A stretch of DNA of 64,000 nucleotides from Arenimonas sp. GDDSR-1 (GTDB taxonomy: Bacteria > Pseudomonadota > Gammaproteobacteria > Xanthomonadales > Xanthomonadaceae): NCBI RefSeq assembly GCF_025980345.1, contig NZ_JAPDUI010000017.1, positions 1 to 64,000 of the forward strand. The letters run 5' to 3'. A program made the translations under genes and the position numbers. How positions within the stretch are numbered: the first letter of the stretch is position 1; the number at the start of each line of letters is the position of its first letter. The notes below the pieces were generated by a model that searched no databases, was not told the DNA's origin, and saw only the letters and a list, made by a program, of their open reading frames with translations. Positions 35,808 through 47,168 of the stretch are shown here, in pieces.

Positions 35808-36224
35808 ATGAGCGCACGCCCGAAATGGTATCTGCCTGTTTCAATCCTCGCCCTGCTGTGGAACCTGATGGGATGCGCCGCCTACCTCAGCGATGTGATG
35901 CTGAGCCCGGCTGACATCGCCGCCATGGATGCGGCGAACCAGACGCTGTACAACAGCCGGCCGGCCTGGGCAGTGGCAGCTACGGCCGTTGCGGTCTGGG
36001 GCGGCGCGGCCGGCTGCCTTGGCCTGATACTGCGCAAACGCTGGTCGGCCGTACTGCTCGAGCTGTCACTGGCGGGCGTGATTGTGCAGGACATCGGCCT
36101 GTTCATCCTCAGCGGCGTCAATCCAGGCAGCTTAGTGATGGCCATGCAGGGCTTTGTGCTGCTGGTCGCCATTGGACTGGTGGTGCTTTCACGCAGGGCG
36201 CTTGCCCGCGGATGGATTGGCTGA
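35808..36224 (+). CDS. Small integral membrane protein, unknown function
   Basis: 4 predicted TM helices; stop abuts the convergent stop of the next gene (TGATCA). Confidence 0.75.
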   Translation: MSARPKWYLPVSILALLWNLMGCAAYLSDVMLSPADIAAMDAANQTLYNSRPAWAVAATAVAVWGGAAGCLGLILRKRWSAVLLELSLAGVIVQDIGLFILSGVNPGSLVMAMQGFVLLVAIGLVVLSRRALARGWIG

Positions 36225-36992
36225 TCAGCGCTCAGTTTCTTTCATCAGCGCCTGCATGTCCTGTAAATACGGCTTGTAATTCCCAATGGCAGTGATGGCT
36301 ACGCCCTGATTGGCGACCCAAAAGCGCAGTTCCGGCAACAGTTTCGGATCCTTCAGATATGCATCGAGTACTGCTTGCGCCTCGACTTCGGAGACCGGCG
36401 ATTCGCAATCGATGAGATACTGCTCACTCGGTTTGGGTTGCTGCCAGCACTTCGCCCAGATATGGTCGGCCACTTTTGATGGCGTCAGTCCCCGCACGAG
36501 CTTCCGATACTCCGGCTGCAGCATGAACAGATACGCGGTTCCGGAGCCGTTCTCCAGGTAATATTGGGACAGCGCATCGCGCAAGCGCTGGTTGCGGATC
36601 AGTCCCAGTTCGCCGCCACTGCGCATTTCCTGATAGGTCGAGTCGGAAGTCACCCATTGCCACAGCTGGCTGGCTTGATAAAACGCCAACACCGTTTTCC
36701 AGGCGGAGCCGTCCACCAATTCGCCGGTCTCGGCATAGCGGACAGCGCCCTTGCCATAGTTGATCACCTGTCGCCACAAAGCCTCGCGGCGCTCGATTGA
36801 TTGCATATCAGCCTGCAGATTGACTTCAATGCGGGTCAAATACGCTTGCGCCTTGGCATCCTCGGCGCGCGCGGCATTCCAATTCGCCACTTGAATGCCC
36901 AAATAAACACCAGCCACCAACAATACAAACTCAATGCCGATAGCCATCCAGTTCTGTTCTTTCAGCGATTGCGAGAGGCGGCGGAGGATCAT
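36225..36992 (-). CDS. Tandem paralog 1 of the DUF6090-like single-TM protein family
   Basis: 'MILRRLSQSLKEQNWMAIGIEFVLLVAGVYLGIQVANWNA'; 'STYQEMRSGGELGLIRNQRLRDALSQYY'. Confidence 0.85.
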   Translation of the reverse strand: MILRRLSQSLKEQNWMAIGIEFVLLVAGVYLGIQVANWNAARAEDAKAQAYLTRIEVNLQADMQSIERREALWRQVINYGKGAVRYAETGELVDGSAWKTVLAFYQASQLWQWVTSDSTYQEMRSGGELGLIRNQRLRDALSQYYLENGSGTAYLFMLQPEYRKLVRGLTPSKVADHIWAKCWQQPKPSEQYLIDCESPVSEVEAQAVLDAYLKDPKLLPELRFWVANQGVAITAIGNYKPYLQDMQALMKETER

Positions 36993-37744
36993 GGCGCGGC
37001 AAGTTCCTTTTCGATGGCCGCGAGCAGTTCAGCGGTTTCCTCGTTGATATCGCTCATCAGATGGTACTGGGTAATCGCCCACTCGCGCTGGCTGCGCAGG
37101 TAGGCCGCAAACCCCGGGTTTTCCCGTGCCAACGCCACGATTTCGGCAGCCGGCCGCTGATCGAACACCGATAGGCCCAACGGATACTGATCACGAGCCC
37201 CGTCGTTCCGGAAAGGGCGCAATACATTCGACTGGACATCCAGCAGGCTGTCGAAATTGCCGTAATAGGCCTGAATCTGATGTGCGAGTTTGCGGTTCTT
37301 CAGAAGCCCGAGGCGGCCGGAACTTATCAGGGATTCGTAGCCGTTGCGAGAACGCACCGAGATCCTCACCAGATTCACCGCGCCCATCAGGTGATCCAGC
37401 TGTTCGGGCGGAAACGCTTCGGCCGGCGGTGCTTCCCAACGCTCGCTGGCACGCACGAGAGTCACCGGCAGGCGGATTCCGAACGCCTGATCGTAAATGT
37501 AATCGACGGCGGCAATACGCAGTTTGGCCGAATCTTCCAGCTCATCGCGTATGGCAAGATGCATCCGGAGGTCCTGGGCGATTTCGGTCAGATGGCCGCG
37601 CACCAATTCACGCTCCACCCGGGCTTCCTTCCAGTTCGCCACTTGAATGCCGAGATAAACGCCGACCACCAGCAACACGAATTCGATGCCGATGGCCATC
37701 CAGTTCTGTTCTTTCAGGGATTGCGACAGGCGACGGAGGATCAT
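36989..37744 (-). CDS. Tandem paralog 2 of the DUF6090-like family (cysteine-less)
   Basis: 'MILRRLSQSLKEQNWMAIGIEFVLLVVGVYLGIQVANW'; 'NGYESLISSGRLGLLKNRKLAHQIQAYY'; ATGA overlap. Confidence 0.85.
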   Translation of the reverse strand: MILRRLSQSLKEQNWMAIGIEFVLLVVGVYLGIQVANWKEARVERELVRGHLTEIAQDLRMHLAIRDELEDSAKLRIAAVDYIYDQAFGIRLPVTLVRASERWEAPPAEAFPPEQLDHLMGAVNLVRISVRSRNGYESLISSGRLGLLKNRKLAHQIQAYYGNFDSLLDVQSNVLRPFRNDGARDQYPLGLSVFDQRPAAEIVALARENPGFAAYLRSQREWAITQYHLMSDINEETAELLAAIEKELAAP

Positions 37745-38526
37745 GGATTTTCCTTGGCCATGGCGAGGATGTTGTTCCTGACATCATCGCTCAGAAACAG
37801 CTGGGCATTGCTCAACTGGGACTTGATGTCCCCGATACGGAGTCTCAGCAATTCGATGAAATCGGGATTCGAGCGCAATATGCCGGCGGCTCTGTCGATT
37901 TCATCAGATGAAAGGCCGGTGGTACAGGCATAATCAAGCGAGGTATCGATTCTGTCATAGTTTCCGACATCCTGGGGCAGATCGCCGCATTTGCTGCCGA
38001 TGGCAGTCTGGACCTTCAACGGAATCTTCATCCGGAAGGCAATCCGGTATCTTGAATTGATGCCCTCGGACTTCAGGTTTTCATAGGCCACGCTGTTGTA
38101 GACCTCAAGCGCGGTTTTTCGCAGCATCGGATCCTTGATCAGGCCAAGCGACCCCGTCGAAGTCAGCTCGTCATAGGTCGACCGGTGTCGAACGGCTTCA
38201 CCGTACTGGGTGGCGCGGTAGGCGGCGATGATCAGCGCCTCGTTCGACAACTGCGCATCGCCCTCCAGAGCATCCAGCGTTCTTTCGGCGTTGCTCAGGA
38301 CATTGCCGTAATACCCATTCAGGGAAATATAGTTCCACGCTTCGGTTTTCAGGTCCTCGCGGAGCCGGCCGGTGAATATTTCGGATTGTTTGCTGGACAC
38401 ACGCTCCGCATTCCAGTTGCTCACCTGGATGCCCAAAACCACACCGCTCACCAGCAGAACGAACTCGATGACGATGGCGGTCCAATTCTGTTCTCTTAGG
38501 CTCTGTGCCAGCCGGCGAAGCATCAT
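37741..38526 (-). CDS. Tandem paralog 3 of the DUF6090-like family
   Basis: 'MMLRRLAQSLREQNWTAIVIEFVLLVSGVVLGIQVSNWNAER'; 'STYDELTSTGSLGLIKDPMLRKTALEVYN'; ATGA overlap. Confidence 0.85.
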   Translation of the reverse strand: MMLRRLAQSLREQNWTAIVIEFVLLVSGVVLGIQVSNWNAERVSSKQSEIFTGRLREDLKTEAWNYISLNGYYGNVLSNAERTLDALEGDAQLSNEALIIAAYRATQYGEAVRHRSTYDELTSTGSLGLIKDPMLRKTALEVYNSVAYENLKSEGINSRYRIAFRMKIPLKVQTAIGSKCGDLPQDVGNYDRIDTSLDYACTTGLSSDEIDRAAGILRSNPDFIELLRLRIGDIKSQLSNAQLFLSDDVRNNILAMAKENP

Positions 38527-39296
38527 CGAACGCCTTCCTTGATTGCGGCAACGATAGGAACAATCTGTTTTCTGGTTGAGGCGTAATTGGCGGCTTTGGT
38601 GTCGTTTTCAGCAAGCTGATAGCGCAGCGCCTGCTCCATGCCCGGCGCCGCACGCAGCGCGGCGGCTGCGCGCTCGATGTCCTCGGCCGGCAAGTCGATA
38701 TCGCACGTCCTGGGCAGCCAGGTGAGATTGGCCCGGCCTGTACGCCTGACCTGATCGCCACAGGCCGATTTGATCGCCTCCTGAACCGGATAGGGCATGA
38801 CGCCGCGCATCAATTCGCGGTAATGCGGCCTGGACGTGACCGTCAGTGCATCGGTCCAGTCAAATTCGTAATAAGCGATCAGCAGGTTGCGGGCCTTTTC
38901 GGTACGGACCAGATTGACGGCGCCGGTAGCCACGATTTCATCGAAGGTCGACCGGCTGGACGCCGCCTCCTGCCACTGGCTTGCCTGATAGGCGCTGATG
39001 ACGAATGTCTCGGCATCGACCGAACCCGGTGCCTCGAATTCACTTAAGGCGACTTTTGCATACGTCGCGGTGGTCAGGTAGTACGCCTGCAGCGCATCGA
39101 CATTGTTGATTTCGCTTTCCAGATCGCCGATGAGACGGATGAACAGCTCATCCGCCCGACGCTGCTCAACCCGTGCCGCATTCCAGTTGCTGACCTGTAT
39201 GCCCAGAAACACGCCGGTCACCAGCAGAATGAACTCGATCCAGATGGCGGTCCAGTTCTGTTCCTTAAGCGACTGCGAGAGCCTGCGGAGAATCAT
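38523..39296 (-). CDS. Tandem paralog 4 of the DUF6090-like family
   Basis: 'MILRRLSQSLKEQNWTAIWIEFILLVTGVFLGIQVSNWNAAR'; 'STFDEIVATGAVNLVRTEKARNLLIAYYEFD'; ATGA overlap. Confidence 0.85.
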   Translation of the reverse strand: MILRRLSQSLKEQNWTAIWIEFILLVTGVFLGIQVSNWNAARVEQRRADELFIRLIGDLESEINNVDALQAYYLTTATYAKVALSEFEAPGSVDAETFVISAYQASQWQEAASSRSTFDEIVATGAVNLVRTEKARNLLIAYYEFDWTDALTVTSRPHYRELMRGVMPYPVQEAIKSACGDQVRRTGRANLTWLPRTCDIDLPAEDIERAAAALRAAPGMEQALRYQLAENDTKAANYASTRKQIVPIVAAIKEGVR

Positions 39297-40075
39297 GGCT
39301 GCGCTCCGGTGACCGTCTTCAGTCCCTCTACAATATCGGAATTGTTCACGGTCATATCGAACAGACGGGTGCCGATGTCGGCAATACGCACGCGCAGATA
39401 GGGGACGAATTGCGGATTCGAACGCAATGACTTTGCCGATTTCTCAATCTCATCTTTTGGCAGATCAAGCGTGCACGGGTAATCGATGGCATTGAGAATG
39501 GCCTTGTAATCGCCGCGCGTGACGTAGCGGTCACCGCACTGCCGGGCGAGCGCGCGCTGCATGTCATTGTCGATACTCATCCGGAACGCTTCCCGATAAT
39601 GCGACTTCACGCCCTCCTGCGCAAGACTGTCCATGCTCGGGACGTTGTAGATCCGCATGGCAGTCAGGCGCAATTTCTGATCCTTGATCAACCCGATATT
39701 TCCGGTTGAAATCAATTCGTCGTAAGTCGCCCGGAAACGTTGCGGATTCTTGTATTGCGTGGCGCGGTAGGCGTTGATGAGCAGCTGTTCATCCGACAGC
39801 GGCACTTTGCCGGTAAGCGCATTGACCGTCTTTTCGGCACTGACGAGCACATCGCGGTTGTATTCAATCAGGTATTGGTAAAAAAACGCCTCGTTGCGCA
39901 AATCGGCTTTCAGCCGCTCCGTGAACACCTCAGTCTTCCGCCTGGTTTCCCGTTCCGCATTCCAGTTGGAAACCTGCATACCCAGAAAAACACCGGTCAC
40001 CAGCAGAATGAACTCGATCCAGATGGCGGTCCAGTTCTGTTCCTTCAGTGATTGCGAAAGACGGCGCAGGATCAT
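39293..40075 (-). CDS. Tandem paralog 5 of the DUF6090-like family (promoter-proximal)
   Basis: 'MILRRLSQSLKEQNWTAIWIEFILLVTGVFLGMQVSNWNAER'; 'ATYDELISTGNIGLIKDQKLRLTAMRIYN'; ATGA overlap. Confidence 0.85.
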   Translation of the reverse strand: MILRRLSQSLKEQNWTAIWIEFILLVTGVFLGMQVSNWNAERETRRKTEVFTERLKADLRNEAFFYQYLIEYNRDVLVSAEKTVNALTGKVPLSDEQLLINAYRATQYKNPQRFRATYDELISTGNIGLIKDQKLRLTAMRIYNVPSMDSLAQEGVKSHYREAFRMSIDNDMQRALARQCGDRYVTRGDYKAILNAIDYPCTLDLPKDEIEKSAKSLRSNPQFVPYLRVRIADIGTRLFDMTVNNSDIVEGLKTVTGAQP

Positions 40076-40191
40076 GACGCAGCCCCGGACCGGTCCTGAC
40101 CAGGATGCTGCCGCTTGCCGCGTGTGCAGTAAGGGTTCCCCATCGACATCCCCCGATGTCCCTGCAGGGCGGAATCGCGCTGCAAGAGCCT

Positions 40192-40222
40192 ATAGTACCT
40201 GAGTTTTCAGGGGCGATTTCAA
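40192..40222 (-). promoter_or_regulatory. Weak candidate sigma70-like promoter for the paralog array
   Basis: Minus strand TTGAAA-19 nt-TACTAT; spacer longer than optimal. Confidence 0.3.
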
Positions 40223-40268
40223 GGCTTTTTCTTGATGGCCAGGCTTCCGGCAGGACGATTTGGACGAA

Positions 40269-42002
40269 CTACATGCCGCGCCCGAGCCGGCTTCGCTCCA
40301 TCCACCACAGCAGGCTGCTGGCCAGCACCCAGCCGAGGAACCACGGCCAAGGCGAGCCTGGCACCGGCACGCGTGATGCCATGGCCGCATCCGGAGCAGG
40401 CGTGACCAGTTTCAGCGTGGCGGCACGGCTCAGGCTGCGGCGGAGCGCTTCGCCTTCTTTCGGGGAGTGGACATAAAACGGCAACTGGTTTTCGTCGCTG
40501 TAAAGCGTGTACCAGCCCGCGGCCTGCGGCCAGAATCCGGCGCAGCCCCGGTTGCTTCCGGTGGTTTCAACACTGAGCGCCTGACGCTCGCTATCGGTCT
40601 GAACCGTGGCGCCGGGCTGCAACTGACAGAACACCATGCGCTCTTGCGGCCAGGCCAGATCTCCACGCCGAACCGGCGGCATTTCCGTCTGCGGACGCGC
40701 CAACATCGAAACCAGATCACTCCAGATCCGGCTATGGGCATCACCGTATCCGGCCAATGCCAGACGGAAGCTGTCCGATAAGAGCAGTACGCCGACACGG
40801 CCATTGCCCTGCGCCCGCCAGAGGGCCAAAGGTTCGCCCTGTGTGCCCGTCAGTACAATCCGGGCATCGGCAGCGCTGACGCGCACCGGCTGCCGGGTCA
40901 GTGTCGGCCAATCGGCGCTTCCGGCATCCGGCGTCAGCTGCACGCTCTGGGTCAGCGTCGCCGCGTCGATGCGCAGTCCCATCTGCCGGAAATCCGCCGC
41001 CGTCTGCGCCGACATCGGGCCGGTGACACGCAGCAGCAACCCAAGACCGTTTGCAACGGCTTCACGGATATTGCGCCGCTGACCGGCATCGAAATTCTGC
41101 CAGGCGCGTTCGTCGACGATCAGCATGTCCTGCTCGGCCAATGTTTCGGCCCGGATTGCGGAATCTTCGGTACGCACCGCCATGCCCGGTCCGAGGGCGA
41201 TATGGCTTTGCAGCTGCAGCCCCGCATCCAGTGCCCAGCGCCGGAGCGACTTCAGATCGGGCCCGGGGCCACCGGCATGACTGAGCAGTTTCATTGCCGT
41301 CGGTTGACTGACCGCAACCGGGACCGTGAAGTTCTCCCTGATCTTACCGGCGGAATCCAAGACCCGCAGTTGATAATTCACCCGCCCGGCGGCGCGTGCG
41401 ATATCGGACAGTGCGGCCTGCCCGGAGGCATCGACGGCTTTGGCATCAACCAATGCGCCGGAAGGGTCCCGCAGTTCGACCCGCGCATCGGCCATGCCGG
41501 ACACGCGGATGCGCAAGAGCCAACGGTGCCCGGTGCTGATCGATTCCGGCATCCAGAAATCGGTCAGTCCAATCGGCGGCGCGGAGGGCAGAAACCGGAC
41601 GCCCCGACCCGCCACGGCTTCGCGGTCACGCGCGGGCAGGCCGTCGCCGACGATGAGCAATTGTCCGATGTCGGGCGATCGACGGAGCAAACTGGCCAGA
41701 TCCGGAACGCGTGGCACCGCCAGCCCTGCCGGCGCTTCCGGCAAAGCGACGCGCTGGCCGACAGGAAGATTTCCGACGGTATCTGAGCCGGCCGTCATCA
41801 CCATGCGCTGGCCGACAGGCACCTGCCGCGTTGGTGGAATCAATGCGTAATACAGCATCAGCGCCGAAATAACGCTCAAGAGCAGCAATGCACCGGTGCG
41901 CCATGGGCGGAATGCATGGCGGCGCGCGGAAAGTAGAATCAGCGCCGCGCTGATCAGAACGGCAATCCCGAGCACAACCGCCAGTAGCGTCGATGACATC
42001 AT
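40269..42002 (-). CDS. Membrane protein with glutamine amidotransferase-like/BatA-associated architecture, unknown function
   Basis: N-terminal TM pair, large soluble region, C-terminal TM 'WPWFLGWVLASSLLWWMERSRLGRGM'; ATGA overlap with the DUF4175 gene. Confidence 0.7.
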   Translation of the reverse strand: MMSSTLLAVVLGIAVLISAALILLSARRHAFRPWRTGALLLLSVISALMLYYALIPPTRQVPVGQRMVMTAGSDTVGNLPVGQRVALPEAPAGLAVPRVPDLASLLRRSPDIGQLLIVGDGLPARDREAVAGRGVRFLPSAPPIGLTDFWMPESISTGHRWLLRIRVSGMADARVELRDPSGALVDAKAVDASGQAALSDIARAAGRVNYQLRVLDSAGKIRENFTVPVAVSQPTAMKLLSHAGGPGPDLKSLRRWALDAGLQLQSHIALGPGMAVRTEDSAIRAETLAEQDMLIVDERAWQNFDAGQRRNIREAVANGLGLLLRVTGPMSAQTAADFRQMGLRIDAATLTQSVQLTPDAGSADWPTLTRQPVRVSAADARIVLTGTQGEPLALWRAQGNGRVGVLLLSDSFRLALAGYGDAHSRIWSDLVSMLARPQTEMPPVRRGDLAWPQERMVFCQLQPGATVQTDSERQALSVETTGSNRGCAGFWPQAAGWYTLYSDENQLPFYVHSPKEGEALRRSLSRAATLKLVTPAPDAAMASRVPVPGSPWPWFLGWVLASSLLWWMERSRLGRGM

Positions 42003-44092
42003 GGTTGGCGTTCCTTTTGCAGTGCCCGTTGATAGGGACTTTCAACCGGCTGCAGACGCCGTGCTTTCGGCACGGCGGGCGGCTTGGCCAATACCGGCCA
42101 GAGCAGCGCTTTGACCGCTTCGCGGCAGCTGCGGCAATCGGGCCGGCTCTCCATTTCCGCCAGCGCCACTTTCAGACCCAGGGCATCGGGCAGGCGATCG
42201 CCATGATCGGCCATCCAGGTTTTCAAATCGGCCGTCTTCGGCGGATCCGCCGCATCGAGACTTTGCCAGAACGCCAGCAGCGGAGCGTCCTCGCGCACGG
42301 CGGCACGCAACTCGTCGTCGGGCGCCTTGAAACCGCTACGGTCGCCGCTGAGCCGCCGGCTTTCATCGATCGGCGGCAATTCGGGACCGACACGGGCCAG
42401 ATAGATCCGTTCAGCCTGTTGCACTTTCTTGATGAAGGCCAGAGCCCGGTATTCAAAGGGCAGCGCCTTGGCCGGTTCGGCCTGCCGCAGGTGCAGCTCG
42501 GCCTGCCACATTTCATTCAATGCCGAGCGCAGCAAGGATTTGGTTCCGGCATCGAGCAAGGTAGCGGCCTCCGGAATGTCATGCGTGTGTCCGAACTGCT
42601 CGAGGATGCTCTGATCGGAAACGGTTGCCGATTTTTCCGGCGCCTTGCCGCCGCCGTGGTCGTGACCGTCATCCGCGTGGTGCCCGCCGTCCTCCGACGG
42701 CGGTTCCGGGGTTTCGGATTCTTCGCCGAGGAACTGGCCGTAACGCAACCGAAGAACGCGCTGATCGACGCCGATGGTATCGGATCGGATTTCGAATTGC
42801 TCCCGGCTGAGTTTCTTCTTCTCGGCCAGCAGCTTTTCGGTGTCGATGATGATCTGGCGCTGGCTGCGGAAATAAGCCGGCATCACTTTTTTCAGCATGC
42901 CTTCGACGCCGCTGGCCTCATAGGCGTCTTCGACCGGCCAGCGCAGGATATACGCGGCGCTGACGGTGCTGTTGGCCTGCGGCCGGCGCCGGTCACCGAC
43001 GCGGAACTGCACAATCAGATCATCGCCGGCCTGCATGCCCAGCGCGGCCAGATCCAGCGTGGCCGCATAGCGCTGCCGTTTTGACGTTCCTTGGCCGATC
43101 AACGCGCGGCTACTGCTTTTGAATTGGATGTTCTCGCCGCTGCCTTGGGCCAATTGAATTTCCATGACCGCATCGGACAGACCGTAATCGTCTTCGGCCT
43201 CCAGCTGCAGCGGCCATGTGCGCTGCCCCGGGGCAAGCAGGCTCAGACTGCGGTCCGGAAGGCTGACGCGCCATTGCGGCGCCTGATCGGGAATGGCATC
43301 CAGACGCTGCCAGGGTTTGTTCTGCGCCTGCCCGTCGATGACCGCCCGGTACACATCCGAAGCCGTCATGACGGCATCCGCTGTCCAGGCATCGCCTTCG
43401 CGGTGCAGATCCACGTTGCGCCCGCTGAAAAACTGCAGCCGCACCTGCCCGGGTTGCGGCGCGAATCGCAATTGCCAGACAATGCGGCTGCCCTCCGGAA
43501 ATTTCGCCGGCAGACCGGTTTCATTCCGCGCAGGAAGTCCGGTGTATGCCGGTGGAATAATCCGAAGATGGGCCTCGATCAACTTTACCGGCGTACGCGC
43601 GACCGACTCCACGGTCGCTTGCGTTTTGAAGCGTCCGGCTTCCTGCGGCTTCGGCCAAAACAATGCGGCGGAAATCATGGCCAAGCTCAGCAGCAGCATT
43701 CCGGAAATCCACGCCATCGGGAACGGCCGGCGCAGATCCTGTTCCGGCAGGGCGGCCAGGCGCTGCTGGATGCGCTGACGCTGCAGGCCGACCAGAGGCG
43801 ATTCGGACGTCTGATGGCCAAACAGCAGATCCGCACTGTTTTCCAGAACAGGCAAGGCATCCAGACGCCTGATCAGCCACGCGTTATCCAGGCGCTGCAG
43901 CCGATGCCGCAGAATCAATCCGAACAGCGCGAGCGCAGCACCCAGAAAAACCCAGGCGGCAATCGCGCCGACACTTTTCCCGAGGAGGTAACACGCCGCC
44001 GCCAATGGCGGAAGACCGATTGCCAGAACGACGCCGACCTCACGCCAACGGGCCTGTGTGAGCCAACGCAGGGGACGCACAGGAACCGTCAT
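41999..44092 (-). CDS. DUF4175-family membrane protein
   Basis: N-terminal TM helices then long coiled/beta region; 'LRLRYGQFLGEESE', 'YFRSQRQIIIDTEKLLAEKKKLS'. Confidence 0.75.
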   Translation of the reverse strand: MTVPVRPLRWLTQARWREVGVVLAIGLPPLAAACYLLGKSVGAIAAWVFLGAALALFGLILRHRLQRLDNAWLIRRLDALPVLENSADLLFGHQTSESPLVGLQRQRIQQRLAALPEQDLRRPFPMAWISGMLLLSLAMISAALFWPKPQEAGRFKTQATVESVARTPVKLIEAHLRIIPPAYTGLPARNETGLPAKFPEGSRIVWQLRFAPQPGQVRLQFFSGRNVDLHREGDAWTADAVMTASDVYRAVIDGQAQNKPWQRLDAIPDQAPQWRVSLPDRSLSLLAPGQRTWPLQLEAEDDYGLSDAVMEIQLAQGSGENIQFKSSSRALIGQGTSKRQRYAATLDLAALGMQAGDDLIVQFRVGDRRRPQANSTVSAAYILRWPVEDAYEASGVEGMLKKVMPAYFRSQRQIIIDTEKLLAEKKKLSREQFEIRSDTIGVDQRVLRLRYGQFLGEESETPEPPSEDGGHHADDGHDHGGGKAPEKSATVSDQSILEQFGHTHDIPEAATLLDAGTKSLLRSALNEMWQAELHLRQAEPAKALPFEYRALAFIKKVQQAERIYLARVGPELPPIDESRRLSGDRSGFKAPDDELRAAVREDAPLLAFWQSLDAADPPKTADLKTWMADHGDRLPDALGLKVALAEMESRPDCRSCREAVKALLWPVLAKPPAVPKARRLQPVESPYQRALQKERQP

Positions 44093-45229
44093 GCCGGCGG
44101 GCTCCGCGCCGGCCGCGTGGCCAGCACGCGTTCGGCAAGAAACAACAGGGCAATGGCCATCATCAGCCACGGCTGCAGTGGCTGCGGATCGGGAATGGTT
44201 CGCGCGGCGCCGGTACGGGGTCGCTGATTCAACGCCGATGCCGTGTCGGGCTGAGGCATTGCCGTCAGCACCGCCTGTAATTGATCGGGAAAGGCGGCAT
44301 CAAGCAGTTGCGGCGTCTGCGAACCGTTCAAGGGCTGTCGCCACTGCAATATGCGGCCTTCGCCCAAGGCCTGCTGCTCAAGCAGGATGCTACCGTCTTC
44401 CGTGCGCCAAAGCACGTCAGACATGCCGGCATCGGTTAGCGCATCCGGCGCGAGCATGAGCGTACCGCCCGCCCGCCGTTTCCGGAATTTTGCCGGCGGA
44501 CAGAACCACCCAGATCCGCGCCGATGCCGGTGGCGTAGCCTCCGCGGCAAGCAAGGGCAGATCGCGTTGCTGCGCCTCCGGCAGCTGCGCCTGCCAGACC
44601 CGGTAGGCCGCGCGGAAATAGCGCGCACGGTCTGCATTTGCAGGATCGGCAGTCAGCACCATGGCCGGAACTTCAGGCTGCGACGCGGTCTCGCGCGTCC
44701 GGCCTTTGACCACCCGCCATTCCACCGCACGCTGCAAGCGAGGCCGCTCGGCATCCCAACCATGCAGGCGTTCCGGCACCAGTACCGTCAAGCGGGTTTT
44801 GGCCGGTAGTCGTGCATCCAGTTCGCGCAGCAGACTGGCCACCGGAACCGCTGTCGGCGGCAGTGGACGGTCCGCTTCGGGAAAGCCGGGCGCCAGCCAA
44901 TGCCTGCTCACCGAGGACCCCGAGGGCAGCTCGGCATCAGGTGGCCAGATGACGCCCGGCACCGCCACCAGCCAATGCGCCGGAGCCGACGTGTGCTGAC
45001 GGACGGGAATCGCCAGAAAAAGTACAAGCAGCGCCAGCAGAAGCAGGCGAAGCAGCAGCAACAGCCATTCCTGCACGATCGGCTGACGCCGTGGACGGAA
45101 ACGGGCCTGCAGCCAGCGCAAGGCGGCAAAATCGGTGCGCTGCTGCTGTGAGCGTCGGCTCAGATGGATCAGCACCGGCAGCGCCAAGGCCAGCAAGGCC
45201 AGAAATGCGGAAGGCAGCAGGAAATTCAT
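44089..45229 (-). pseudogene. BatA-domain membrane protein interrupted by a frameshift (frame 1: 45229-44417; frame 2 resumes at about 44480-44089)
   Basis: N-terminal 'FLLPSAFLALLALALPVLIHLSRRSQQQRTDFAALRWL' BatA motif; removing one GCGG unit (or one base) at 44465-44476 joins both frames into about 378 aa ending in a TM helix and an ATGA overlap with DUF4175. Confidence 0.75.
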
Positions 45230-46131
45230 GCGCTTTCCTGAAAGCGCGCCTTGCCCTGCGCGAACAGACGTACCAAGGGCGCGTCGAGGCGCTCATCCAG
45301 AACATACGGCACATGCCGGATGCCGGCCGAAGTCAGACGCAGCGCCAGTTCTTTGCAGGCGGCGGAAAACGCACGCAGATAGTCCTCGCGGGCGGCGGCG
45401 GCATCGGTCAGCAGGGCCGCGCCGGATTCGACATCGATGAAGCGCCGGCCATCGCGGAATGGAAAGTCGCGCTCTTCGACGGTCAGGATCTGGATATTCA
45501 GTACCTCGCGTCGGGCGGCGGCTAGCCGTTCAATCAAGGCCAGGGCACGCTCGTCGAAATCGTCGCTGAGCAGCAGCACCAGATCGTTGGCGTGGATGCG
45601 CTCCCAGATCGGCCGACAGGCGGCTTCATCCGGCCAGGCGCCCGCTGCCGACAACGCGCTCAAGGCCTGCAGACAACGGTCGCGGTGACGGGTGCCGCTG
45701 CCGGCATTGATGACCTGCAGTCGGTCACCGCTGACCGCAATCAGGCCGAAACGGTCGCCCTGCCGGCAGGCCAGCTCGAACAGACAGGCGGCCTGTGCTT
45801 TCGCGGCCTGCAGCCGGCTCCAGCCGGGCCGTGCGGCATCCGATTGCGCCATCGAAGCACTGGCGTCGAGCAGCACCCAGGCGGCCAGTGGACTGTCGCG
45901 CTCGGATTCACGCACGAAGAATTTATCGGAGCGCGCGTACAGTTTCCAGTCGATCTGGCGCGGCTCGTCGCCCGGCTCATAAGCGCGGTACTGGGCGAAC
46001 TCCATGCCGGCGCCGCGTGAACGGCTGTGATGCTGGCCGATGCCGAGCGCGCCCGATACCCGGCGCGAGACCAGACGCAGCCCTTTCAGGCGCGCCCGGA
46101 CATCAGCGGGAATCAGATCGGGTCCGGCCAT
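45226..46131 (-). CDS. DUF58 domain protein
   Basis: 'GMEFAQYRAYEPGDEPRQIDWKLYARSDKFFVRESERDSPLAAWVLLDASASM'. Confidence 0.93.
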   Translation of the reverse strand: MAGPDLIPADVRARLKGLRLVSRRVSGALGIGQHHSRSRGAGMEFAQYRAYEPGDEPRQIDWKLYARSDKFFVRESERDSPLAAWVLLDASASMAQSDAARPGWSRLQAAKAQAACLFELACRQGDRFGLIAVSGDRLQVINAGSGTRHRDRCLQALSALSAAGAWPDEAACRPIWERIHANDLVLLLSDDFDERALALIERLAAARREVLNIQILTVEERDFPFRDGRRFIDVESGAALLTDAAAAREDYLRAFSAACKELALRLTSAGIRHVPYVLDERLDAPLVRLFAQGKARFQESA

Positions 46132-46142
46132 GGCGTTTGGGC

Positions 46143-47168
46143 TCAGTGCGGGTATGGAACCGCAGCCAGCAGCAGGGCCACCACGTCATCGGCGCTCTTT
46201 TGTTCGGCTTCGGCCATGAAGGTCAGCAACAGGCGGTGGCGCAGCACCGGTGCCGCCAATGCGCGGACGTCGTCCTCGGTGACCGCAAAGCGGCCGTGGA
46301 TGAGTGCACGCGCCTTGGCGCTGAGCACCAGTGCCTGTCCGGCACGCGGACCGGCGCCCCACTTCACCCATTGCCCGATGCCCGGTGTTTCGGACTGCGG
46401 CCGGCTGGCACGCACCAGACGGTTGATCCAGGCCAGCATGTCGGCGCTGATGTGGACCTCGCGTACCAGTTTCTGCAGGCCGAGCACGGCCTCGCCGGCC
46501 ATCACCGTCGGCACCCGCGAAGATCCGCTGCCGGTGGTCTGCATCAGGATGTCGCGCTCTTCGTCTTCGCTGGGATAGTCGACGCGGATATGCAGCAGGA
46601 ATCGGTCGAGCTGCGCTTCCGGCAGCGGATAGGTGCCGGCCTGCTCCAGCGGATTCTGCGTTGCCAGAACGAAAAACGGTTCCGGCAGGGCATGCGTGAC
46701 GCCGGCATAACTGACGGTATGTTCCTGCATGGCCTCCAGCAGGGCGGCCTGGGTCTTCGGCGGCGTGCGGTTGAGCTCGTCGGCCAGCAGCAGGTTGGTG
46801 AACACCGGACCGGGCTGGAATTTGAAGTGGCGTTTGCCGGTACCGTGGTCCTCTTCCAGGATTTCGGTCCCGAGGATATCGCTCGGCATCAGATCGGGTG
46901 TGAACTGGATGCGCCGGAACGCCAGTGCCAGCGCCTGCCCGAGTGAACGAACCAACAGGGTCTTGCCCAGGCCCGGAACGCCCTCGAGCAGACAGTGACC
47001 GCCGGCCAGCAAACCGATCAACAGTTGTTCGACCACCGCATCCTGGCCGACGATGGCCTTGGCAATGGCGGCGCGCAGCGCGCCGAGCTGGTCGAGGGTG
47101 GCTTGGATATCGGCTTCGGTACTGGTCATGGCGGGCTTTTCCGGTTGGGGTTTCATGGCATCAGGCAT
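46143..47168 (-). CDS. MoxR-family AAA+ ATPase
   Basis: 'GGHCLLEGVPGLGKTLLVRSLGQAL', 'LLADELNRTPPKTQAALLEAMQE', 'FFVLATQNPLEQAGTYPLPEAQLDRF'. Confidence 0.95.
   Translation of the reverse strand: MPDAMKPQPEKPAMTSTEADIQATLDQLGALRAAIAKAIVGQDAVVEQLLIGLLAGGHCLLEGVPGLGKTLLVRSLGQALALAFRRIQFTPDLMPSDILGTEILEEDHGTGKRHFKFQPGPVFTNLLLADELNRTPPKTQAALLEAMQEHTVSYAGVTHALPEPFFVLATQNPLEQAGTYPLPEAQLDRFLLHIRVDYPSEDEERDILMQTTGSGSSRVPTVMAGEAVLGLQKLVREVHISADMLAWINRLVRASRPQSETPGIGQWVKWGAGPRAGQALVLSAKARALIHGRFAVTEDDVRALAAPVLRHRLLLTFMAEAEQKSADDVVALLLAAVPYPH

What the first reader, a model, noticed from the sequence alone, without database searches (positions are those of the whole stretch)
36225..40075. Five-gene, translationally coupled array of paralogous single-TM proteins with constant N-termini and variable C-terminal domains
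Five consecutive minus-strand ORFs of 251-261 aa each start with nearly the same roughly 40 aa (M[IM]LRRL[SA]QSL[KR]EQNW.AI.IEF[VI]LLV.GV.LGIQV[SA]NW). This is a basic cytosolic tail plus one TM helix, so an N-in topology with a periplasmic C-terminal domain is predicted. The roughly 210 aa C-terminal parts diverge but keep a core motif, R.[ST][YF].E[LIM].[SA][STG]G.[LVI][GN]L[IVL][KR]. All four junctions are exact ATGA overlaps (36989-36992, 37741-37744, 38523-38526, 39293-39296). The layout resembles what I recall of DUF6090-type proteins in Bacteroidetes, for which I know no established function. A stoichiometrically co-translated set of five diversified paralogs suggests a hetero-oligomeric envelope complex or a diversifying ligand/toxin-binding family. 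This is the best candidate here for an undescribed system.
Basis: partly seen in the sequence, partly recalled or inferred. Interest (0 to 1): 0.85.

Follow-up and report, generated by a model that had tools for sequence, protein, structure and literature searches.

The report
Shuffling cassette array of membrane-anchored periplasmic proteins
Five neighbouring genes make inner-membrane proteins that share one almost identical anchor but carry different outer domains; relatives in many bacteria form longer, reshuffled sets whose shared anchor DNA is kept alike by recombination, so this looks like an undescribed, easily rearranged protein repertoire whose function is not yet known.

Summary
Five minus-strand genes (36225-40075) overlap by ATGA at all four junctions and share a 38-residue anchor (30-37 of 38 identical), while their periplasmic domains are strongly diverged. 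Only gene 1 passes the Pfam cut-off for DUF6090 (function unknown). There is no match in PDB, PADLOC, phage or plasmid collections. AlphaFold gives confident all-helical models (pLDDT 95 and 93) with no PDB fold match. Related arrays occur in 54 of 200 genomes of the order and in Alphaproteobacteria, with up to about 15 coupled genes; 172 of 228 close junctions are -4 overlaps. Within arrays the anchor is 84% identical against 58% between genomes, yet periplasmic domains are equally unrelated (19% in both). Synonymous codons in the anchor are shared far above expectation (66% vs 43%) but not in the outer domain (43% vs 40%). The anchor DNA is therefore homogenised by recombination while outer domains are reshuffled. 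Best reading: a recombinable periplasmic repertoire whose anchor block doubles as crossover site. Arrays in Lysobacterales are often embedded in tandem CadC-like/TPR membrane genes. The biochemical role remains inferred.

The parts
39293..40075 (-). gene 1 (260 aa), outer-domain type A; DUF6090 over the Pfam cut-off
39962..40075 (-). constant anchor block of gene 1 (38 codons)
39293..39296 (-). ATGA overlap of genes 1 and 2
38523..39296 (-). gene 2 (257 aa), outer-domain type F
39183..39296 (-). constant anchor block of gene 2; 37/38 residues identical to gene 1
38523..38526 (-). ATGA overlap of genes 2 and 3
37741..38526 (-). gene 3 (261 aa), outer-domain type A
38413..38526 (-). constant anchor block of gene 3
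37741..37744 (-). ATGA overlap of genes 3 and 4
36989..37744 (-). gene 4 (251 aa), outer-domain type H, with a beta-hairpin insert in the model
37631..37744 (-). constant anchor block of gene 4
36989..36992 (-). ATGA overlap of genes 4 and 5
36225..36992 (-). gene 5 (255 aa), outer-domain type B; 81% identical outer domain in L048
36879..36992 (-). constant anchor block of gene 5; 37/38 residues identical to gene 4
40076..40268 (-). 193-bp gap between the upstream operon and the array, probably carrying the array's promoter; no consensus sigma-70 site found by the scan
   Evidence: promoter inferred

Best explanation
The five genes are one translationally coupled repertoire of inner-membrane-anchored periplasmic proteins. 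Each protein has a basic cytosolic tail, one TM helix that always carries an acidic residue at position 21 and a small-xxx-small pair (G28, G/A32), and a helical periplasmic domain. SHOWN: array habit, shared helical architecture of two diverged members, homogenisation of the anchor DNA, and reshuffling of outer domains among arrays. INFERRED: the ~115-bp anchor block is both a functional membrane/packing module and the site of homologous crossover, so whole outer-domain cassettes can be gained, lost or swapped in frame without breaking the start-stop coupling. INFERRED, weaker: the outer domains are binding modules, each for a different periplasmic ligand or partner, displayed at equal dose and perhaps co-assembled through the common TM helix. 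In Lysobacterales the likely partners are the linked CadC-like/TPR membrane proteins. I give about 0.8 to the recombinable-repertoire part and about 0.35 to the ligand/partner-binding role.
For: Anchor identity within arrays is 84% vs 58% between genomes, with outer-domain identity 18.8 vs 18.6%. Same-codon use at identical residues is 65.8% observed vs 42.9% expected in the anchor and 42.5 vs 40.1% in the outer domain; excess is positive in 54 of 56 arrays, p = 2.7e-10 against the outer domain. For 162 genes with a cross-genome outer-domain ortholog, the best array mate matches the anchor at least as well as the ortholog in 141. Direct cases: L045:8777 vs gene 4, outer domain 62% but anchor 39% identical; two Henriciella genomes, outer domain 86% but anchor 53%, with similarity resuming at nucleotide 68 of the gene and two extra cassettes upstream in one genome. 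Array leaders occur on foreign domains (L084, L118, L062, L097) and as stubs (L043, L062, L097). Subtypes recur in changing order and repeat within an array less than shuffled (27 vs 42.6 +/- 6.8). Acidic residue at position 21 in 269/269. Junctions: 172 of 228 are -4. Models. Linkage to CadC-like/TPR genes: 27 of 78 loci, 26 on the same strand; co-occurrence 10/10 vs 3/17 genomes, p = 3.4e-5.
Against: In the window itself codon sharing clearly exceeds expectation only for pairs 1-2, 2-3 and 4-5. Anchor amino-acid identity between separate arrays of one genome is as high as within an array, which also fits co-evolution with one membrane partner. No CadC-like/TPR gene lies in this window; the genome has copies on other contigs only, and most alphaproteobacterial arrays lack them. 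No ligand, partner or phenotype is known. The fold has no PDB match. The loci were fetched with anchor-type patterns, so members with unusual anchors are under-sampled.
Confidence: 0.55

Rival explanations
1. An immunity (self-protection) array: each periplasmic domain neutralises a different periplasm-acting toxin from competitors, and the array expands by recombination as for esaG and tipC.
For: Closest described behaviour: tandem paralogous immunity genes with ~50-130 nt homology blocks recombine to alter repertoire (PMC9484751). Non-redundant subtypes, patchy presence and periplasmic placement fit.
Against: Among 113 neighbouring proteins no toxin or secretion-system family stands out in the 25 commonest Pfam families or in PADLOC. 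No PADLOC hit for the five proteins. A family-wide conserved core (T117, E120, G125) argues for a shared activity.
Confidence: 0.2
2. Periplasmic co-component sensors: each protein pairs with a linked 3-TM CadC-like/TPR protein to form a receptor, in the manner of VtrC with VtrA or ToxS with ToxR.
For: Single-TM periplasmic proteins are coupled to genes whose periplasmic part matches the CadC/HilA profiles and carries TPRs. Interleaved loci such as TTT-D-x-DDDDDD-TTT in L103. Co-component genes overlap in known cases (PMC9214523).
Against: No such gene in this window and few in alphaproteobacterial loci. The linked proteins lack a DNA-binding domain. The outer domain is helical, not lipocalin-like.
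Confidence: 0.2
3. Fixed hetero-oligomeric envelope complex made in equal amounts.
For: Start-stop coupling at every junction; conserved acidic residue and G-xxx-G in the TM helix.
Against: Content, order and number vary between genomes; single-gene loci exist.
Confidence: 0.15
4. The constant N-terminus reflects only purifying selection on a membrane anchor after ancient duplication, with no recombination.
For: W15, G28, Q34 and W38 are conserved in all arrays (Q34 and W38 partly by the selection of members); codon sharing also somewhat exceeds expectation between genomes (49% vs 38%).
Against: The within-array synonymous excess (66 vs 43%) and anchor/outer-domain mismatch of orthologs cannot come from protein-level selection alone.
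Confidence: 0.08
5. A filament-forming or motor-type membrane protein: the TM segment (IELVIVV, acidic residue at its cytosolic end) works like a type IV pilin or an ExbD/MotB helix.
For: Always acidic at position 21 within the hydrophobic segment; resemblance by eye to the pilin IEL.IVV motif (from knowledge).
Against: No pilin or ExbD hit in Pfam or NCBIfam; only a chance-level ComGG match (E 0.13). No Gly/Phe prepilin-type site. The 73-residue helix followed by a helical domain is not pilin-like.
Confidence: 0.04

Closest known systems
Pfam PF19578 (DUF6090), uncharacterised
   Same: Gene 1 passes the curated cut-off; the match starts at the acidic TM residue and runs without gap into the outer domain.
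   Different: Genes 2-5 fall below the cut-off; no paper in the held library names the family; tandem coupling and anchor homogenisation are not part of its description there.
Tandem immunity gene arrays esaG/tipC (T7SS) and lpl lipoprotein arrays of Staphylococcus/Streptococcus (PMC9484751)
   Same: Tandem paralogs with short conserved DNA blocks that mediate recombination and changes in repertoire.
   Different: Gram-negative hosts, one 5' block that is a TM anchor, start-stop coupling at nearly every junction, no known toxin, different fold.
Co-component systems VtrA/VtrC and ToxR/ToxS (PMC9214523)
   Same: A single-TM periplasmic protein encoded by an overlapping gene next to a CadC-like periplasmic partner in some relatives.
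   Different: No DNA-binding partner; long arrays; helical outer domain; no partner in this window.
Rhs/CDI C-terminal displacement
   Same: Constant N-terminal part with exchangeable C-terminal modules.
   Different: Small membrane proteins; outer domains all homologous; no toxin-like C-termini recognised.

Membership tests
DUF6090 (PF19578) | profile score above 23.5 bits | tested here: inconclusive
   Met by gene 1 (27.2); genes 2-5 at 19.4 bits or lower or without a listed match. All five match one common profile strongly.
DUF6090 (PF19578) | TM helix from the acidic residue followed by the family's soluble domain | tested here: met
   Gene 1 residues 21-144 align to profile 1-124.
Recombining tandem immunity arrays (esaG/tipC type) | tandem paralogs with conserved DNA blocks and recombination through them | tested here: met
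Recombining tandem immunity arrays (esaG/tipC type) | cognate secreted toxin or secretion system linked | tested here: not met
   No toxin or secretion family stands out among 113 neighbours (only the 25 commonest of 149 Pfam families are shown).
Co-component signal transduction | adjacent membrane-tethered partner with a CadC-like periplasmic domain | tested here: not met
   Absent from this window, though present in 27 of 78 loci examined.
Co-component signal transduction | obligate periplasmic heterodimer | not testable with these tools
   No complex prediction offered.
Type IV pilins | prepilin N-methylation motif | tested here: not met
   No pilin family in Pfam; NCBIfam only E 0.13.
Integron gene cassettes | attC site between genes | tested here: not met
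   Genes overlap by 4 nt, leaving no room.
Known anti-phage defence systems | match to a defence protein model | tested here: not met
   No PADLOC match up to E = 1.
Phage or plasmid cargo | close relatives in phage, plasmid or viral records | tested here: not met

The most novel reading that the evidence does not exclude
A bacterial combinatorial receptor repertoire: outer-domain cassettes on a recombinable TM anchor assemble into mixed complexes with each other and with tandem CadC-like/TPR proteins, so that recombination in the anchor block continually changes what the cell envelope can recognise.
Probability: 0.15. Interest if true: 0.9.

Novelty: new variant of a known kind. Interest (0 to 1): 0.62.

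Why it matters
It turns an anonymous domain family into a defined genetic system with testable rules: a short DNA block encoding a membrane anchor is kept uniform by recombination while attached periplasmic domains are dealt into different hands in different genomes. Recombining arrays of this sort are known mainly from Gram-positive immunity and lipoprotein genes. A Gram-negative, translationally coupled version that is sometimes interleaved with CadC-like/TPR genes would point to an unrecognised envelope recognition or competition system in Lysobacterales and marine Alphaproteobacteria.

Tried and rejected
Phage or plasmid origin: no relatives in phages, plasmids or viral contigs. Known defence: no PADLOC hits. 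Solved relatives by sequence or fold: none (the best fold hits are chance-level helical bundles). RNA element in the window: none at Rfam gathering thresholds. Pilin or spanin: only weak matches. Toxin or secretion gene linked to arrays: none stands out. Recent tandem duplication as the source of the arrays: rejected, since array mates are no more alike in the outer domain than strangers. Some early neighbour clustering was polluted by shadow ORFs and was replaced by profile searches. Bacteroidota DUF6090 proteins could not be sampled.
Full report
OBSERVATION. The first 38 residues match at 30-37 positions in every pair; the following 38 match at 5-17, and shuffled anchors never exceed 11. The published motif fits genes 1-3 exactly and genes 4 and 5 loosely. 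Genes 1 and 2 form one close anchor pair and genes 4 and 5 another (37/38 each).

SURROUNDINGS. Upstream on the same strand lies a MoxR-DUF58-BatA type operon (46143-47168, 45226-46131, 44417-45229 and two unassigned genes down to 40269), separated from the array by 193 bp. Downstream, a convergent ORF of 138 aa with no family ends at 36224, next to the stop of gene 5; beyond it are a GDSL lipase and a small outer-membrane barrel. No promoter-like site or terminator excess was found. The genome (2.04 Mb, 89 contigs) has no other array member. By its relatives it is a member of the Lysobacterales; its genus includes a genome deposited as Arenimonas sp. (placement inferred from matching contigs).

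FAMILY. Gene 1 passes the DUF6090 cut-off; genes 2-5 do not, but all five match one profile. Nothing was found in NCBIfam, PADLOC or PDB, and PHROGs gave only short or weak matches. No paper in the held library names DUF6090. Members occur in 10 of 27 genomes of the genus, 13 of 150 of the family, 54 of 200 of the order in 23 of 72 genera, 5 of 276 of the class, and in Alphaproteobacteria such as Hyphomonas, Henriciella and Marinicaulis.

ARRAYS. In 77 named loci plus the window I found 341 member ORFs or fragments. Of 228 close same-strand junctions 172 are -4 (159 ATGA) and 23 are -1. The longest array has about 15 genes (L074). Subtypes of the outer domain recur in different orders; window order is A-F-A-H-B. 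Same-type pairs within arrays are fewer than in shuffled decks (27 vs 42.6 +/- 6.8).

ANCHOR HOMOGENISATION. Within arrays the anchor is 84% identical, between genomes 58%, while outer domains are equally unrelated (18.8 and 18.6%). At positions with the same amino acid, the same codon is used in 65.8% of anchor cases against 42.9% expected from codon usage, but in 42.5% against 40.1% in the outer domain (first run). The excess holds in 54 of 56 arrays. It is weaker between arrays of one genome (55.8 vs 39.2%) and weakest between genomes (48.6 vs 37.9%). In the window the excess is visible for pairs 1-2, 2-3 and 4-5. The drop in similarity is abrupt after codon 39.

EXCHANGE EVENTS. Gene 4 and L045:8777 share 62% of the outer domain but 39% of the anchor; L045:8777 shares 92% of the anchor with its best array mate. 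In two Henriciella genomes the orthologous gene is 86% identical in the outer domain and 53% in the anchor; DNA similarity resumes at nucleotide 68 of the gene, and one genome has two further cassettes just upstream between flanks that are otherwise shared. Array leaders sit on outer domains of a second family in L084 and L118 and on unrelated secreted proteins in L062 and L097; leader stubs remain in L043, L062 and L097. From this I infer that the anchor block is the usual crossover site. A crossover there keeps both the reading frame and the start-stop coupling.

PROTEIN. AlphaFold models of gene 1 (pLDDT 95.4) and gene 4 (92.7) are essentially all-helical: one continuous helix through the membrane and stalk (15-87 in gene 1), followed by a helical bundle, with a beta hairpin inserted in gene 4. 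Foldseek found nothing significant in PDB or viral models. Position 21 is acidic in 269 of 269 members, G28 is invariant and position 32 is always G or A, a pattern that in general suggests specific helix packing (inference). Two or more Cys in 209 of 269 outer domains fit a periplasmic disulfide (inference).

LINKED GENES. In 27 of 78 loci, mainly Lysobacterales, the same neighbourhood holds 3-TM proteins with a CadC/HilA-like periplasmic region and TPRs; 26 of the 27 are on the same strand, 19 lie within 200 bp, and they are themselves often tandem. Within the genus every genome with array members also has such a gene (10/10 against 3/17, p = 3.4e-5, not corrected for relatedness). None is in this window. 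Other neighbours are generic (M28 and M20 peptidases, TPR, DUF4440), with no toxin or defence signature standing out.

INTERPRETATION. The recombining-repertoire reading is well supported; what the repertoire recognises is not. The nearest described behaviour is that of esaG and tipC immunity arrays and lpl lipoproteins (PMC9484751); the nearest described architecture beside CadC-like partners is the co-component sensor (PMC9214523). Immunity and sensing are therefore the two leading functional rivals, and neither passes a full membership test here.

Noticed in passing
L103, L066, L053, L028, L124: Tandem arrays of 3-TM CadC-like/TPR membrane proteins, often coupled and interleaved with the DUF6090-like genes; apparently another undescribed array family.
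   Followed up: partly
L115:1170-2881, L042, L043, L046, L052, L059: A co-array family (about 270 aa, SRWRRFSPSMGW..FWSEI.IVVLGVVIALAANEAV) with the same acidic TM spacing and no Pfam or NCBIfam match; its outer domain appears on the array leader in L084 and L118.
   Followed up: partly
L055:5902-6393, L062:8233-8778, L083:5855-6397, L087:1056-1625: A second small membrane-protein type without a significant Pfam match, coupled into alphaproteobacterial arrays.
   Followed up: partly
L122:13979-16495: A CadC-like/TPR-type periplasmic module behind what looks by eye like the end of a Ser/Thr kinase domain, suggesting a signalling output for that family.
   Followed up: no
L114:4523-6876: Several array leaders are interrupted by the same short repeat-like sequence (HSHAGAWERE when translated).
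   Followed up: no
window 40269-47168: MoxR-DUF58-BatA type operon directly upstream of the array, same strand; probably independent.
   Followed up: partly
window 35808-36224: Convergent 138-aa ORF without any Pfam match; its stop codon abuts the stop of gene 5.
   Followed up: no
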